Virus record (IMG/VR): IMGVR_UViG_3300030328_002398
Span: 1-55,003 of that record
Direction: 5' to 3' (one strand)
DNA length: 55,003 nt
Origin: a virus
Below, piece by piece: positions 1-39,676 of this stretch. The notes below the pieces were generated by a model that was not told the origin of the DNA, ran no database searches, and was given only the letters and a program-made list of their open reading frames with translations. Position numbers and translations under genes: made by a program. Each line of letters opens with the position of its first letter. Positions within the stretch are counted from its first letter, which is position 1.

Positions 1-120
1 CAGGGTTTCCTGATCAATTATACTCTTCCCGTTTAACCAAGACCTATGGGAAGTAAAATACGTCTTTATCCTACCTTCAGGTCTAGGGTTCTGAAGGATC
101 TTAGTTTCGCTGTTACCCTG
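1..120 (+). promoter_or_regulatory. structured 5' leader RNA of psbA (PhotoRC-like)
   Basis: Three paired elements are visible. CAGGG (1-5) can pair with CCCTG (116-120) and would close a junction that encloses two perfect hairpins: CTTCCC (25-30)/GGGAAG (48-53) and CCTTCAG (74-80)/CTGAAGG (91-97). The two loops are also complementary: AACC (35-38) with GGTT (87-90), and AGAC (40-43) with GTCT (81-84), a possible 8-bp kissing contact. Structured RNAs called PhotoRC motifs are known upstream of psbA in marine cyanobacteria and their phages, and position and compactness fit that class. The class name comes from memory, not from a covariance search. No coding frame crosses the segment; the first 56 bases could hold the last codons of an upstream gene. 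Confidence 0.55.
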
Positions 121-4113: not shown

Positions 4114-5616
4114 ATGAAATTATTGGCACTTCGTTTATGTGCTCACGACTCAAATATTACATATTTTGATGGTGATCGAATAAAATACAAATCATTTGAA
4201 AGGGACTTTCAAGTCAAACACTTTGGCTTTGAAGGTCTTTATGGTTGGACACGTATATTGCAAGAATGGGATATTACACCACAGGACGTTGGTGCTGTAG
4301 GTATCGTTATGGACACTCATGCCCATAATGAGGTATATTGCGAACCAGAGAAAATTGAAGAAGATGTGGAAATTGCCCCTTTTCGTGATTTGGGGTTTAA
4401 TTGTCCAATTCATAGAATTGACCATCATTACGCTCATTCTCTAAGTTTTTGGCCTTTGGGAATTGAACCAAATCTCCATTTTGTGTTTGATGGGTTTGGT
4501 GATGATTGGATGTATAGAAGTGTTTGGAGAGATGGAAAGCTAATTGACAGTTCTAAGTCAAATGGTCAAATGATGCATTATTCCCCAAGTTTGGGGTTTA
4601 TAATGACCAGATTGGGTGCTTTGCTTGATATGCAAGGTCATTATTTGGATCAGGCAGGTAAAATAATGGCTTTGAAAGCATTTGGTCCTACTGATTGTCC
4701 AGATGTTCCAGATGTTGATAATATTGATAAATTAAATGATCTATGGGATTTTAATATACTTGAAAGATCTGTACATGATCAAAATTATACTTTAGGTTTT
4801 ATTGCAACTGCTCATGAGAAAACAGAGCAGTTATTCTTAAAACATTTTCAAGAATTTGCTCAGGATGGTGATGTTATAGGTTATTCTGGTGGTATTGCAC
4901 AGAATACTATTATTAATAAGGTACTAAAAGATAGATTCCCTAATCTTGTTATACCACCACATGCCAATGATCAGGGATTGAGTTTAGGTGTTATTGAATA
5001 TTTAAGAAAGAGATATAATTTGGATCCATTTGACAGAAGTGGATTTCCTTTTTGGCAAGATGATGAAACAGTACCACCACCATCCGATAAGACTATTAAA
5101 GATACAGCTGAACTATTAGCACAAGGAAAGATAGTTGGATGGCATCAGGGACATGGAGAAGTGGGTCCTAGAGCATTAGGTAATAGGAGTATATTGATGA
5201 GACCTGATGAACCAGAAGGAAAGGAATGGATTAATGGTAAAGTTAAGAAGAGGGAACCATATAGGCCATTTGGTGCTTCTGTATTAGAGGATAAGGTATC
5301 TCAACATTTTTATTGGAATGGACCTTCTCCTCATATGTTATATGTTACAGATGTATTGGAACCAGAGAAATACCCTGCAATTACTCATAATGATGGAACA
5401 TGTAGAATTAATACAGTATCTAAAGAACAGGAGTATTATTATGAATTAATTCTTAAATTTGAGAAGCTTACTGGGTTACCCGTACTTTTGAATACTTCTT
5501 TAAACGTAAATGGAAAACCAATTGCAGGCAGGGTTATTGATAGTTTAGAGACTTTTTATAAGAGTGATTTAGATGTTTTGGTATATGGTGATACACTAAG
5601 ACAAAAGGATATATAA
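4114..5616 (+). CDS. carbamoyltransferase, NodU/CmcH/TobZ family
   Basis: These enzymes make carbamoyl-adenylate from carbamoyl phosphate and ATP, then carbamoylate a hydroxyl of a sugar or antibiotic. The 500 residues cover both domains. The N-terminal ASKHA-like domain has RLCAHDSN and the metal-binding HHYAH (104-108). The C-terminal domain has GPRALGNRSIL (about 351-361), REPYRPFGASVLED and LNTSLNVNGKPI. The acceptor is unknown; surface glycans, modified nucleotides or virion glycans are possible. It is the first of two in the window (the other at 38009), with low similarity between them. It is followed by an HNH nuclease gene. Confidence 0.92.
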   Translation: MKLLALRLCAHDSNITYFDGDRIKYKSFERDFQVKHFGFEGLYGWTRILQEWDITPQDVGAVGIVMDTHAHNEVYCEPEKIEEDVEIAPFRDLGFNCPIHRIDHHYAHSLSFWPLGIEPNLHFVFDGFGDDWMYRSVWRDGKLIDSSKSNGQMMHYSPSLGFIMTRLGALLDMQGHYLDQAGKIMALKAFGPTDCPDVPDVDNIDKLNDLWDFNILERSVHDQNYTLGFIATAHEKTEQLFLKHFQEFAQDGDVIGYSGGIAQNTIINKVLKDRFPNLVIPPHANDQGLSLGVIEYLRKRYNLDPFDRSGFPFWQDDETVPPPSDKTIKDTAELLAQGKIVGWHQGHGEVGPRALGNRSILMRPDEPEGKEWINGKVKKREPYRPFGASVLEDKVSQHFYWNGPSPHMLYVTDVLEPEKYPAITHNDGTCRINTVSKEQEYYYELILKFEKLTGLPVLLNTSLNVNGKPIAGRVIDSLETFYKSDLDVLVYGDTLRQKDI

Positions 5617-37540: not shown

Positions 37541-37612
37541 GCCTCTATAGCACAGCGGTAGTGCAGGGCTTTTGTAAAGCCAAGGTCGGCGGTTCAAATC
37601 CGTCTGGAGGCA
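37541..37612 (+). tRNA. tRNA-Thr (TGT)
   Basis: A 72-nt cloverleaf: acceptor GCCTCTA/TGGAGGC (one T-G pair), D arm GCAC/GTGC, anticodon loop TTTGTAA with TGT, and T arm GGCGG/CCGTC around TTCAAAT. One G-A mismatch sits in the anticodon stem. The 3' CCA is not encoded. It lies directly before the tmRNA acceptor piece. It reads ACA codons. Confidence 0.93.
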
Positions 37613-37679
37613 TCCTCTTTTGAGGATAGGTGATGTCACCTACATTCTGGACAGGAGTTCGACTCTCCTCACCTCCACC
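37613..37679 (+). ncRNA. ssrA: tmRNA acceptor piece (permuted two-piece tmRNA)
   Basis: The 3' half of a tmRNA placed first. The tRNA-like T arm AGGAG/CTCCT around TTCGACT (37653-37669) is preceded by TCTGGAC as in bacterial tmRNA ends. The acceptor strand is CACCTCC (37670-37676), the discriminator A37677, and partial CC follows. CACCTCC pairs with GGGGGTG at 37759-37765, about 80 bases downstream, which would complete the acceptor stem. A TCCTC/GAGGA hairpin (37613-37626) and TAGGTGA/TCACCTA inverted repeat (37627-37642) precede it. Such permuted tmRNAs are known in marine cyanobacteria. The 5' boundary is uncertain. Confidence 0.85.
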
Positions 37680-37681
37680 TT

Positions 37682-37754
37682 TGCTCCTTAGCTCAGTTGG
37701 TAGAGCGGTTGACTGTTAATCAATTTGTCGCTGGTTCGAGCCCAGCAGGAGCAG
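37682..37754 (+). tRNA. tRNA-Asn (GTT), embedded between the tmRNA pieces
   Basis: A complete 73-nt cloverleaf: acceptor TGCTCCT/AGGAGCA, D arm GCTC/GAGC, anticodon stem GTTGA/TCAAT with loop CTGTTAA, T arm GCTGG/CCAGC around TTCGAGC, discriminator G. It begins 2 bases after the acceptor piece and ends 4 bases before the coding piece, so it fills the intervening segment of the permuted tmRNA. Its processing ends could release the tmRNA pieces. Confidence 0.93.
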
Positions 37755-37758
37755 TCAT

Positions 37759-37990
37759 GGGGGTGCCAAGGTTTCGACAGGGTATAAGGAACATGACTGA
37801 AGACCTGCTTGGATAAGCAAACACAGATGCTAAAGACATCGACACCGCTGCGAATAACATCGTAGCATTCTCTCGTGTTCTCACAAGAGAATTCTCCCGC
37901 ACTAGCGAACTCGCTACTGCCTAAGGGGAGATGGGGGTTTAGATCAACCTTCTTAACCAACTGATCCTTGGGGGTGCAATGCCCCCTCTA
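37759..37990 (+). ncRNA. ssrA: tmRNA coding piece with proteolysis tag
   Basis: It starts GGGGGTGCC, followed by GGTTTCGACAGG, the conserved 5' tmRNA segment. The tag frame begins at GCG 37850 and ends at TAA 37922-37924. It encodes 24 residues, starting ANNIVAFSR (the cyanobacterial tag start) and ending SELATA. The C-terminus differs from the LAA or VAA that proteases recognise. After the tag, AUCCUU (37964-37969) can pair with GAGGAU (37622-37627) of the acceptor piece. A GGGGG/CCCCC hairpin (37970-37986) may end or stabilise the RNA. The 3' end is uncertain. Confidence 0.9.
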
Positions 37991-38008: not shown

Positions 38009-39676
38009 ATGAGAGTAGTTGGTATTAGTCCTAGTCATGATGCTTCCGTTTGTGTATTAAACGATGGAGTTATAGAAGGTTTTTATAAAGAAGAGAGATA
38101 TTGGCGTGAGAAGAAAGCGGATAGACCATACCTTTCATTAATTGAAGCAAAGAATAACTTAAAGGGTCCAGTAGATAAGGTAGTAATTGCATCACCAGAT
38201 CCCCCAGATTCATATAGTATAGATGAGATCGCAAGGAGATTATTTGGTTGTGAAGTTCTTGATATGTCTCAGGTGCATCACCTACAACATGCTGCACTTG
38301 GATTTGAGAATAGTAAGTTTGATCAGGCTTTAATATTTGTGTTAGATAGACAGGGATCTCTTATAGGTGATTGTTTAACTGAATCCGAGACTGTTCTTGT
38401 AGGAGAGAGGGATCCATATTCAATTATGGAGATCTATAAAAACTATTGGGCTCCTGTATCTGGTTTTGAACATTCTTTAAAGATTAATAAGGTATTAGAA
38501 GAACTTAATAATAGTGGAACTACTAAACATATTTGTAGAAGTCAGTTTTGTTTAACTAAAGTTTATGAGTCTGCAACTACTTTAATAGGACAACACCCAT
38601 TAGAGAATGGTAAGACTATGGGATTGACTGCTTATGGTAATCCTGACGGATTTCCAGATCTATTTGTTAAGGCATTGGATCCAGACATCCAAATGATTCC
38701 AAACGATTCCTATTTTAATAAGATAGAACCCATAACTCATACACCAGAACCCGTATGTTTTAGGGATTTTACTCATATGATTGTTAAGAATGTCCCTCAA
38801 GATTATTATCAAGTATATGCTGATTATGCAAAGCATGTTCAGAATCAAACTCAAGAGGCAGTATCAGAATGTATTGCATACTATTCTAATAAGACAGGTA
38901 TTAAGAATATAGTGGTGACAGGTGGTTTTGGTATGAATGTAGTTGCAAATTCATATTATGTTCAGACTAATCCAGATCTAAATTTCTTCTTTGAACCACT
39001 TGCAGATGATACTGGTAATAGTATTGGTGGTGCCATGCTTGTATATAAACAAACATCAAAAGATATTAGAAATTATGCTTTATGTGATACCTTCTATCAT
39101 GGAACTCCTACTTCTGCTGGAGATCTAGGACAGGATGTTGATTTATCTGAGGTTGTAGAGTTACTCTTACAGCAGAAGTCTATTGGAGTATTTCAAGGAT
39201 ATGCAGAGGCAGGACAACGTGCATTAGGTAATAGATCTATACTATTTGATGCTACTAATCCAGAGTGCAAGAATATTCTTAATCGTATTAAGAAGAGGGA
39301 ATGGTATCGTCCTTTTGCTGCAATGGTACTTGAAGAAGACGCTGATATATATTTTGATATGTTAGGATCATCTCGTAGTGAGTTTATGACTCAATCATAT
39401 CAGGTTAGGAGTGAATATAGAGAATTACTAAAGGGTATTGTACATGTGGATGGTTCTTGTCGATTACAGACAATAAATAAAGGACATTCATTATATGATT
39501 TCCTTAAGGAATTGAAGAGTAATGACCATATTGGTGTTATTGCCAATACATCATTTAACCTTGCTGGAGAACCACTTGTAGAAACAGTGGATCAGGCTCT
39601 TAAAACACTAAATGAATCAGAGTTGGATTATCTCTGGTTTCCTGAACATTCTAGGATTATTAAAGACAATGTTTGA
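38009..39676 (+). CDS. carbamoyltransferase, NodU/CmcH family (second copy)
   Basis: 555 residues with N-terminal ISPSHDASVCVL, metal-binding VHHLQHAALGF (His90, His91, His94), GKTMGLTAYGNP, GGFGMNVVAN, then C-terminal AEAGQRALGNRSIL and REWYRPFAAMVLEED. It carbamoylates an unknown hydroxyl acceptor. It is clearly diverged from the copy at 4114, so not a recent duplicate. It leads the oxygenase cluster, and the next gene overlaps it by 8 bases. Confidence 0.92.
   Translation: MRVVGISPSHDASVCVLNDGVIEGFYKEERYWREKKADRPYLSLIEAKNNLKGPVDKVVIASPDPPDSYSIDEIARRLFGCEVLDMSQVHHLQHAALGFENSKFDQALIFVLDRQGSLIGDCLTESETVLVGERDPYSIMEIYKNYWAPVSGFEHSLKINKVLEELNNSGTTKHICRSQFCLTKVYESATTLIGQHPLENGKTMGLTAYGNPDGFPDLFVKALDPDIQMIPNDSYFNKIEPITHTPEPVCFRDFTHMIVKNVPQDYYQVYADYAKHVQNQTQEAVSECIAYYSNKTGIKNIVVTGGFGMNVVANSYYVQTNPDLNFFFEPLADDTGNSIGGAMLVYKQTSKDIRNYALCDTFYHGTPTSAGDLGQDVDLSEVVELLLQQKSIGVFQGYAEAGQRALGNRSILFDATNPECKNILNRIKKREWYRPFAAMVLEEDADIYFDMLGSSRSEFMTQSYQVRSEYRELLKGIVHVDGSCRLQTINKGHSLYDFLKELKSNDHIGVIANTSFNLAGEPLVETVDQALKTLNESELDYLWFPEHSRIIKDNV

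What the first reader, a model, noticed from the sequence alone, without database searches (positions are those of the whole stretch)
37613..37990. Permuted two-piece tmRNA with a whole tRNA-Asn between its halves
The 3' acceptor half (T arm TTCGACT, acceptor CACCTCC, discriminator A) comes first; the 5' coding half, starting GGGGGTG and GGTTTCGACAGG, comes 80 bases later. CACCTCC and GGGGGTG pair over 7 positions (one G-U). A complete 73-nt tRNA-Asn fills the intervening segment with only 2 and 4 spare bases. Permuted tmRNA is known in marine cyanobacteria. A tRNA used as the processed linker is, to my knowledge, not a described arrangement; RNase P and 3' tRNase cleavage of the tRNA could free both tmRNA pieces.
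Basis: partly seen in the sequence, partly recalled or inferred. Interest (0 to 1): 0.92.

Follow-up and report, generated by a model that had tools for sequence, protein, structure and literature searches.

The report
tRNA nested inside split tmRNA
In this ocean cyanophage, a complete tRNA gene sits exactly in the throw-away gap of a two-piece ribosome-rescue RNA (tmRNA) gene, and related phages have gained or lost tRNAs at that same spot several times, so cutting out the tRNA probably also frees the two tmRNA halves.

Summary
Window 37613-37990 is an intact permuted cyanobacterial-type tmRNA (Rfam cyano_tmRNA, 113 bits). Its 81-nt intervening segment (37678-37758) holds one canonical tRNA-Asn(GUU), 37682-37754 (Rfam tRNA, 68.7 bits), with 4 spare bases on each side. 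A tRNA-Thr abuts the 5' side.

It is recurrent. Of 42 viral contigs matching a tRNA-in-gap pattern, 14 hold a whole tRNA in the gap (7 Asn, 7 Tyr). The pattern matched once in the genome collection of 84,980 species, an ordinary tRNA cluster.

The gap is bimodal. Among 123 cyanophage-type tmRNAs, 110 have a 4-9 nt gap and 13 an 81-90 nt gap, each one tRNA. A tree needs at least 9 changes between empty, Asn and Tyr. All 16 public phage records matching the coding piece have 5-nt gaps, so the form is known only from metagenomes.

Best reading: one transcript in which ordinary tRNA processing releases the tRNA and both tmRNA pieces. Cleavage is inferred, not shown. A 2025 database paper mentions one permuted tmRNA with a tRNA-Ala in its gap (PMC11915505). 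New variant of a known kind.

The parts
37541..37612 (+). tRNA-Thr (TGT) gene, abutting the tmRNA acceptor piece with no spare base
   Evidence: ARAGORN; Rfam tRNA 64.4 bits
37613..37677 (+). tmRNA acceptor (3') piece: 5' hairpin, T arm 37653-37669, acceptor strand CACCTCC 37670-37676, discriminator A 37677; the 5' end is inferred from the tRNA-Thr end
   Evidence: Rfam RF01851 and RF04321 alignments; letters
37678..37758 (+). Intervening segment: CCTT + tRNA-Asn + TCAT (81 nt)
37682..37754 (+). tRNA-Asn (GTT), 73 nt, discriminator G, no encoded CCA; acceptor TGCTCCT/AGGAGCA
   Evidence: ARAGORN (ends given as 37681-37756); Rfam tRNA 68.7 bits at 37682-37754; stems 7/7, 5/5, 5/5 complementary
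37759..37990 (+). tmRNA coding (5') piece: acceptor strand GGGGGTG 37759-37765, then GGTTTCGACAGG, tag frame, 3' structured region and final hairpin; the model match ends at 37985, the mature 3' end is not known
   Evidence: Rfam RF01851
37829..37924 (+). Tag reading frame AKDIDTAANNIVAFSRVLTREFSRTSELATA*
   Evidence: ARAGORN; translation

Best explanation
This is a functional cyanophage two-piece tmRNA gene whose intervening segment has been taken over by a functional tRNA-Asn gene. It is read as one chain: tRNA-Thr, tmRNA acceptor piece, tRNA-Asn, tmRNA coding piece. Host RNase P cuts at the 5' end of tRNA-Asn and so frees the 3' end of the acceptor piece (leaving CCTT to be trimmed and CCA to be added). 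The 3'-end tRNA enzymes (tRNase Z or exonucleases) cut behind tRNA-Asn, and RNase P removes the last 4 bases to make the 5' end of the coding piece. The two tmRNA pieces stay joined by the 7-bp acceptor stem and the long helix below it, are charged with alanine and tag stalled proteins with the phage's 31-residue tag. Shown: the sequence anatomy, the recurrence, the two-peaked gap length, the preserved complementarity. Inferred: expression, each cleavage, charging, tagging.
For: tmRNA intact: 113 bits for cyano_tmRNA, within the 109-143 of three cyanophage isolates, with an open tag frame. tRNA intact: 68.7 bits, better than the neighbouring tRNA-Thr at 64.4. In all 15 tRNA-bearing cases (window plus 14 contigs) the checked stems are fully complementary: tRNA acceptor 7/7, anticodon 5/5, T 5/5, and tmRNA acceptor 7/7 across the tRNA, one tmRNA pair being C-G in some and T-A in others. 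Spacers are only 2-5 nt each side. The tRNA-Asn is identical over 73 nt in 7 records (window and 6 contigs) whose tmRNA pieces are 78-99% identical. A second tRNA-Asn of different sequence sits in the gap of a cyanophage tmRNA beside psbA (L017/L501). The tree needs at least 9 changes; for tRNA against empty, 8 are forced by well-supported branches.
Against: No RNA evidence of expression or cleavage. None of the 16 phage records that match the coding piece at E 0.01 or better has the arrangement; all have 5-nt gaps. Folding alone does not single out the proposed structure: z -1.18 and a shifted anticodon hairpin for 37613-37800, and none of the tmRNA or tRNA acceptor pairs in the minimum-energy fold of 37541-37990. 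No promoter above chance was seen. Identity of the tRNA among 7 records could reflect recombination instead of selection.
Confidence: 0.78

Rival explanations
1. Passenger in a safe place: the gap is discarded RNA next to a tRNA cluster, so recombination now and then drops a tRNA gene there and it is tolerated because it processes itself; it gives the tmRNA no benefit. (Compatible with the best explanation's cuts; it differs on whether the tRNA matters to the tmRNA.)
For: Most relatives presumably mature with a 4-9 nt gap (110 of 123), so a tRNA is not needed. Changes of state are frequent. The tmRNA lies in or next to a tRNA cluster in several phages. Short gaps CCTTTGCAA (L108, L112) and CCTTGCAA (L419) look like scars of a lost tRNA-Asn (inference).
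Against: In four of the Asn records (L008, L020, L041, L043) the tmRNA half before the tRNA encodes CCA plus one base, which none of the 110 short-gap forms does; this hints at adaptation of the junction to tRNA processing.
Confidence: 0.5
2. The tRNA insertion has killed the tmRNA and the locus is a tRNA gene inside a tmRNA pseudogene.
For: Rfam score 113 is lower than 143 in Sf-FS3 and 131 in S-CAM1.
Against: S-SSM7, with a short gap, scores 109. Open tag frames in the 13 of 15 tRNA-bearing copies that are long enough to read; full acceptor complementarity in 15 of 15.
Confidence: 0.06
3. Assembly artefact or chance adjacency.
For: All 14 other examples are metagenomic contigs.
Against: 14 contigs from 12 different metagenome data sets, two tRNA kinds, six distinct tRNA sequences, several tmRNA lineages.
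Confidence: 0.01

Closest known systems
Two-piece (permuted) cyanobacterial tmRNA, Rfam RF01851
   Same: Order of halves, T arm, 7-bp acceptor stem with G-U at pair 3, A-N-N-I-V tag core, 3' structure
   Different: Gap is a whole tRNA; the RF01851 consensus shows a loop of about a dozen bases there
Permuted tmRNA with tRNA-Ala in the intervening sequence, nominally archaeal GCA-2688965 (PMC11915505, passage read)
   Same: An intact tRNA gene lies in the intervening sequence of a permuted tmRNA
   Different: Single case, other tRNA, not a phage record, called unique; here recurrent in cyanophages with Asn and Tyr.
Cyanophage permuted tmRNAs of S-SSM7, Sf-FS3, S-CAM1, S-CAM3 and the single-cell virus AG-345-P14
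   Same: Same tmRNA family; S-SSM7 and Sf-FS3 match the window best at the tmRNA locus
   Different: 5-nt gaps such as CTCAG, CTCAT, TTCTT and TTCAG instead of a tRNA
Two-piece tmRNA of methylophage Melnitz and pelagiphages (PMC9004378, passages read)
   Same: Phage-borne two-piece tmRNA
   Different: Alphaproteobacterial type; the passages read mention a riboswitch, not a tRNA in the gap

Membership tests
Permuted cyanobacterial tmRNA (RF01851) | Score above the family's curated cut-off | tested here: met
   113 bits against 70
Permuted cyanobacterial tmRNA (RF01851) | Acceptor half before coding half, 7-bp acceptor stem, G-U at pair 3 and discriminator A (alanine identity, recalled) | tested here: met
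Permuted cyanobacterial tmRNA (RF01851) | Tag reading frame with stop | tested here: met
   the tag ends in ATA instead of the usual AA (recalled)
Permuted cyanobacterial tmRNA (RF01851) | Short loop as intervening segment (a usual, not a defining, feature) | tested here: not met
   81 nt with a tRNA
Permuted cyanobacterial tmRNA (RF01851) | Transcript cut into two RNAs held by base pairing | not testable with these tools
   Northern blots confirmed it for Prochlorococcus (PMC1242208, passage); not for this phage
tRNA-Asn | Cloverleaf above Rfam tRNA cut-off, anticodon GTT | tested here: met
   68.7 bits against 29
tRNA-Asn | Charged with asparagine and used in decoding | not testable with these tools
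   No call bears on it

The most novel reading that the evidence does not exclude
The gap of viral two-piece tmRNA genes is a cargo bay: anything that the tRNA-processing enzymes cut out cleanly can be carried there. In cyanophages the cargo is a whole tRNA-Asn or tRNA-Tyr that acts as the maturation module of the tmRNA, coupling the supply of a tRNA to the supply of ribosome rescue; in other phages the bay carries a one-helix microprotein gene.
Probability: 0.3. Interest if true: 0.8.

Novelty: new variant of a known kind. Interest (0 to 1): 0.62.

Why it matters
It is a natural series of paired genes, with and without a tRNA at the same site, that makes the maturation of two-piece tmRNA testable: how can a 4-9 nt loop be cut out at all, and does a tRNA in its place make cutting better? 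It also shows a compact RNA operon in which the ends of one RNA define the ends of another, and a hot spot at which phage tRNA genes come and go. It is easily overlooked: in the 15 annotated phage records looked at, no tmRNA is annotated at the locus, and in most of them a hypothetical protein is drawn across it.

Tried and rejected
Rejected: a one-piece tmRNA (no second 3' end found); chance; assembly error (12 data sets).

Tried with little gain: promoter scan (1 found, 1.4 expected); folding energy and minimum-energy folds. Tested whether the T-arm-like stretches in 24 of the 42 contigs (mostly beta_tmRNA type) are tRNAs too: ARAGORN called none within the gap (in L033 it drew a tRNA-Tyr over the acceptor half that only touches the gap), ARAGORN on the gaps alone called tRNAs only in the 15 cases reported, and Rfam's tRNA model gave no hit over its cut-off there in the 19 of those 24 records searched. 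So I do not count them, although L033 and L036 look by eye like tRNAs with an enlarged anticodon loop. Three of the 42 (L026, L037, L045) are a tRNA-Ala followed by a short-gap tmRNA (in L037 the tRNA is cut by the contig end and only its 3' part is seen); one (L015) is a plain tRNA cluster, as is the only genome hit (L048). I could not rescan the genome collection with a looser pattern, so the negative in genomes rests on one pattern, and the one published tRNA-Ala case was not found with it. The scans may leave out records very near the window, so viral counts are lower bounds; a gap of exactly 43 bases between the fixed parts was not covered.

Rows dropped: one search parsed 145 tmRNAs; 22 lacked the A-N-[NK]-I-V tag. 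One search lists them: 7 cut off by a contig end before the tag (5 with short gaps; L008 and L046 with a tRNA), 13 of another type with A-N-D tags (gaps 27-90 nt, no tRNA), and L168 and L433, unclassified, with 27-nt gaps. The tree uses the 89 distinct rows with a tag. In one search the count for the D stem used a wrong motif and is not used.

Papers: passages read in PMC11915505, PMC9004378, PMC1242208, PMC3037559, PMC4131195; search listings with abstract starts only for the rest. Gaudin 2002 and Sharkady and Williams 2004 were not held and are recalled. 'Only one earlier mention' rests on the searches, in a library that lacks most subscription journals.

Full report
What is there. Window 37541-37990 reads tRNA-Thr, tmRNA acceptor half, tRNA-Asn, tmRNA coding half, all on the + strand. 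Rfam places cyano_tmRNA (RF01851) over 37596-37985 at 113 bits and tmRNA_permuted (RF04321) over 37629-37870 at 80 bits, both above their cut-offs. The two acceptor strands, CACCTCC and GGGGGTG, are complementary at all 7 positions across the tRNA; the only G-U is pair 3, which in tRNA-Ala and tmRNA is the alanine identity mark (recalled), next to discriminator A. The tRNA-Asn at 37682-37754 scores 68.7 bits with Rfam's tRNA model and has anticodon GTT and discriminator G. Spare bases are CCTT before and TCAT behind it.

Folding. The minimum-energy fold of 37613-37800 forms the tmRNA acceptor stem (7/7) and inside it the tRNA acceptor (7/7) and T (5/5) stems, with a D-arm hairpin (read by eye); the anticodon hairpin is shifted (0/5 canonical pairs) and z is -1.18. 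For 37541-37990 the minimum-energy fold (z -4.16) has the tRNA-Asn anticodon stem (5/5) but none of the tmRNA acceptor, tRNA acceptor or T pairs. So the structural case rests on family models and comparison, not on folding energy.

Where it is. The window is a 55-kb virus record. It carries psbA, a baseplate hub with tail lysozyme, a large tail fibre and a 2OG-Fe(II) oxygenase gene, and for 26000-50000 the best-matching phage record is Synechococcus phage S-SSM7. At the tmRNA locus its nearest public relatives, Sf-FS3 and S-SSM7, have an intact permuted tmRNA with a gap of only 5 nt, CTCAT and CTCAG. All 16 phage records that match the coding piece at E 0.01 or better (15 of named cyanophages, including RefSeq duplicates, and the single-cell virus AG-345-P14) have 5-nt gaps.

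How common it is. A pattern for 'tmRNA acceptor end, tRNA T arm, tmRNA coding start' matched 42 viral contigs. By ARAGORN, Rfam and inspection 14 of 42 hold a whole tRNA in the gap: Asn in L008, L017, L020, L025, L041, L042, L043; Tyr in L016, L021, L024, L027, L035, L044, L046. Of the other 28, 3 are a tRNA followed by a short-gap tmRNA, 1 is a tRNA cluster, and 24 are other permuted tmRNAs without a recognised tRNA in the gap. The same pattern matched 1 stretch in the genome collection (84,980 species), an ordinary tRNA cluster.

Constraint on the gap. Parsing all loci held then gave 145 tmRNAs with a paired acceptor stem; 123 have the A-N-[NK]-I-V tag (119 viral contigs, 3 public phage records and the window; 89 distinct sequences). 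Of these, 110 have a gap of 4-9 nt and 13 a gap of 81-90 nt; all 13 long gaps are one tRNA (7 Asn including the window, 6 Tyr). With L008 (Asn) and L046 (Tyr), which are cut off before the tag, that makes 15 tRNA-bearing cases. The 22 rows without the tag are listed and described under Tried and rejected; two of them, L168 and L433, remain unclassified with 27-nt gaps. So in this tmRNA type the gap seems to be either minimal or a tRNA.

Function of both genes. In all 15 cases the tRNA acceptor (7/7), anticodon (5/5) and T (5/5) stems and the tmRNA acceptor (7/7) are fully complementary; there are six distinct tRNA sequences, and one tmRNA acceptor pair is C-G in some and T-A in others. Seven records (window and six contigs) share an identical 73-nt tRNA-Asn while their tmRNA pieces are 78-99% identical, which suggests selection on the tRNA, or recent exchange. 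L017 has a different tRNA-Asn and lies beside psbA in another cyanophage contig, whereas the window's tmRNA is 36 kb from its psbA, so it is probably an independent case.

History. On a tree of 89 distinct tmRNAs built without the gap, the states empty, Asn and Tyr need at least 9 changes; for tRNA against empty, 8 are forced by well-supported branches. Asn occurs in two distant parts and Tyr in three. Sister pairs differ: L025 (Asn) and L112 (empty), L035 (Tyr) and L136 (empty). The empty gap of L112 and L108, CCTTTGCAA, begins like the Asn-bearing gap CCTTTGC..., which looks like a scar of tRNA loss; this is inference.

Mechanism. In a short-gap tmRNA both cuts must be made in a loop of 4-9 nt. 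With the tRNA in place, RNase P and the 3' enzymes have a normal tRNA substrate, and the tRNA's own ends lie 2-5 nt from the tmRNA ends. Four Asn records encode CCA plus one base between the tmRNA discriminator and the tRNA, so one cut and one trimmed base would finish the tmRNA 3' end; the window has CCTT and would need trimming and CCA addition. That two-piece tmRNA is two separate molecules was confirmed by Northern blot in Prochlorococcus (PMC1242208, passage). Nothing here shows cleavage in this phage.

What is known. PMC11915505 (passages) lists 97,179 unique tmRNA sequences, 79 of them from phages, and reports as a unique feature one permuted tmRNA with a tRNA-Ala in its intervening sequence. 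PMC9004378 (passages) counts 53 two-piece forms among 133 distinct phage tmRNA structures. Neither the passages read nor the listings mention the cyanophage form. I file it as a new variant of permuted cyanobacterial tmRNA.

A wider hint. In other viral permuted tmRNAs the gap can carry a small gene: 11 of 160 distinct gaps of 50 nt or more (a sample) hold a ribosome-binding-site-like motif and an ATG frame of 21-24 codons, hydrophobic, whose stop codon ends 1 nt before the end of the gap; letter-shuffled gaps give 0.16%. Single-base codon differences among ten of them, counted over pairs of equal length and so not independent, are 127 silent and 71 not. Together with the tRNAs this suggests that the gap is used as a cargo site.

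Noticed in passing
Gaps of viral permuted tmRNAs in L309, L324, L326, L339, L341, L354, L365, L367, L370, L391, L394: A 21-24 codon frame with a ribosome-binding-site-like motif and one hydrophobic span (such as MNDDLTPLAIGVVVVLVVFAIVLL) lies inside the tmRNA intervening segment, its stop 1 nt before the end of the segment; 11 of 160 distinct gaps against 0.16% of shuffles.
   Followed up: partly
L499, minus strand, gap of the permuted tmRNA: The gap holds a longer frame, about 44 codons (MTDIEKMQ...), again behind a ribosome-binding-site-like motif (sequence, read by eye).
   Followed up: no
L033 and L036, tmRNA gaps: By eye the gaps resemble tRNAs with intact acceptor, D and T arms but an enlarged anticodon loop; Rfam's tRNA model does not call them.
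   Followed up: partly
window 37829-37924 and relatives: Several cyanophage tmRNA tags are long and end in ATA, VTA or ATV instead of the usual AA, which may change how tagged proteins are degraded.
   Followed up: no
L002 2504-2722, L003 2443-2568, L503 405-566, L509 322-462; L001 2836-3045: Public records of S-SSM7, S-CAM1, S-SSM6a and S-CAM3 annotate hypothetical proteins across the unannotated permuted tmRNA; in Sf-FS3 one overlaps its last few bases.
   Followed up: no
window 4114-5616 and 38009-39676: Two different Nol-like carbamoyltransferase genes in one 55-kb phage fragment, the second directly behind the tmRNA.
   Followed up: no
window 12-111: PhotoRC-II RNA element (50.1 bits) in front of the phage psbA gene.
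   Followed up: no
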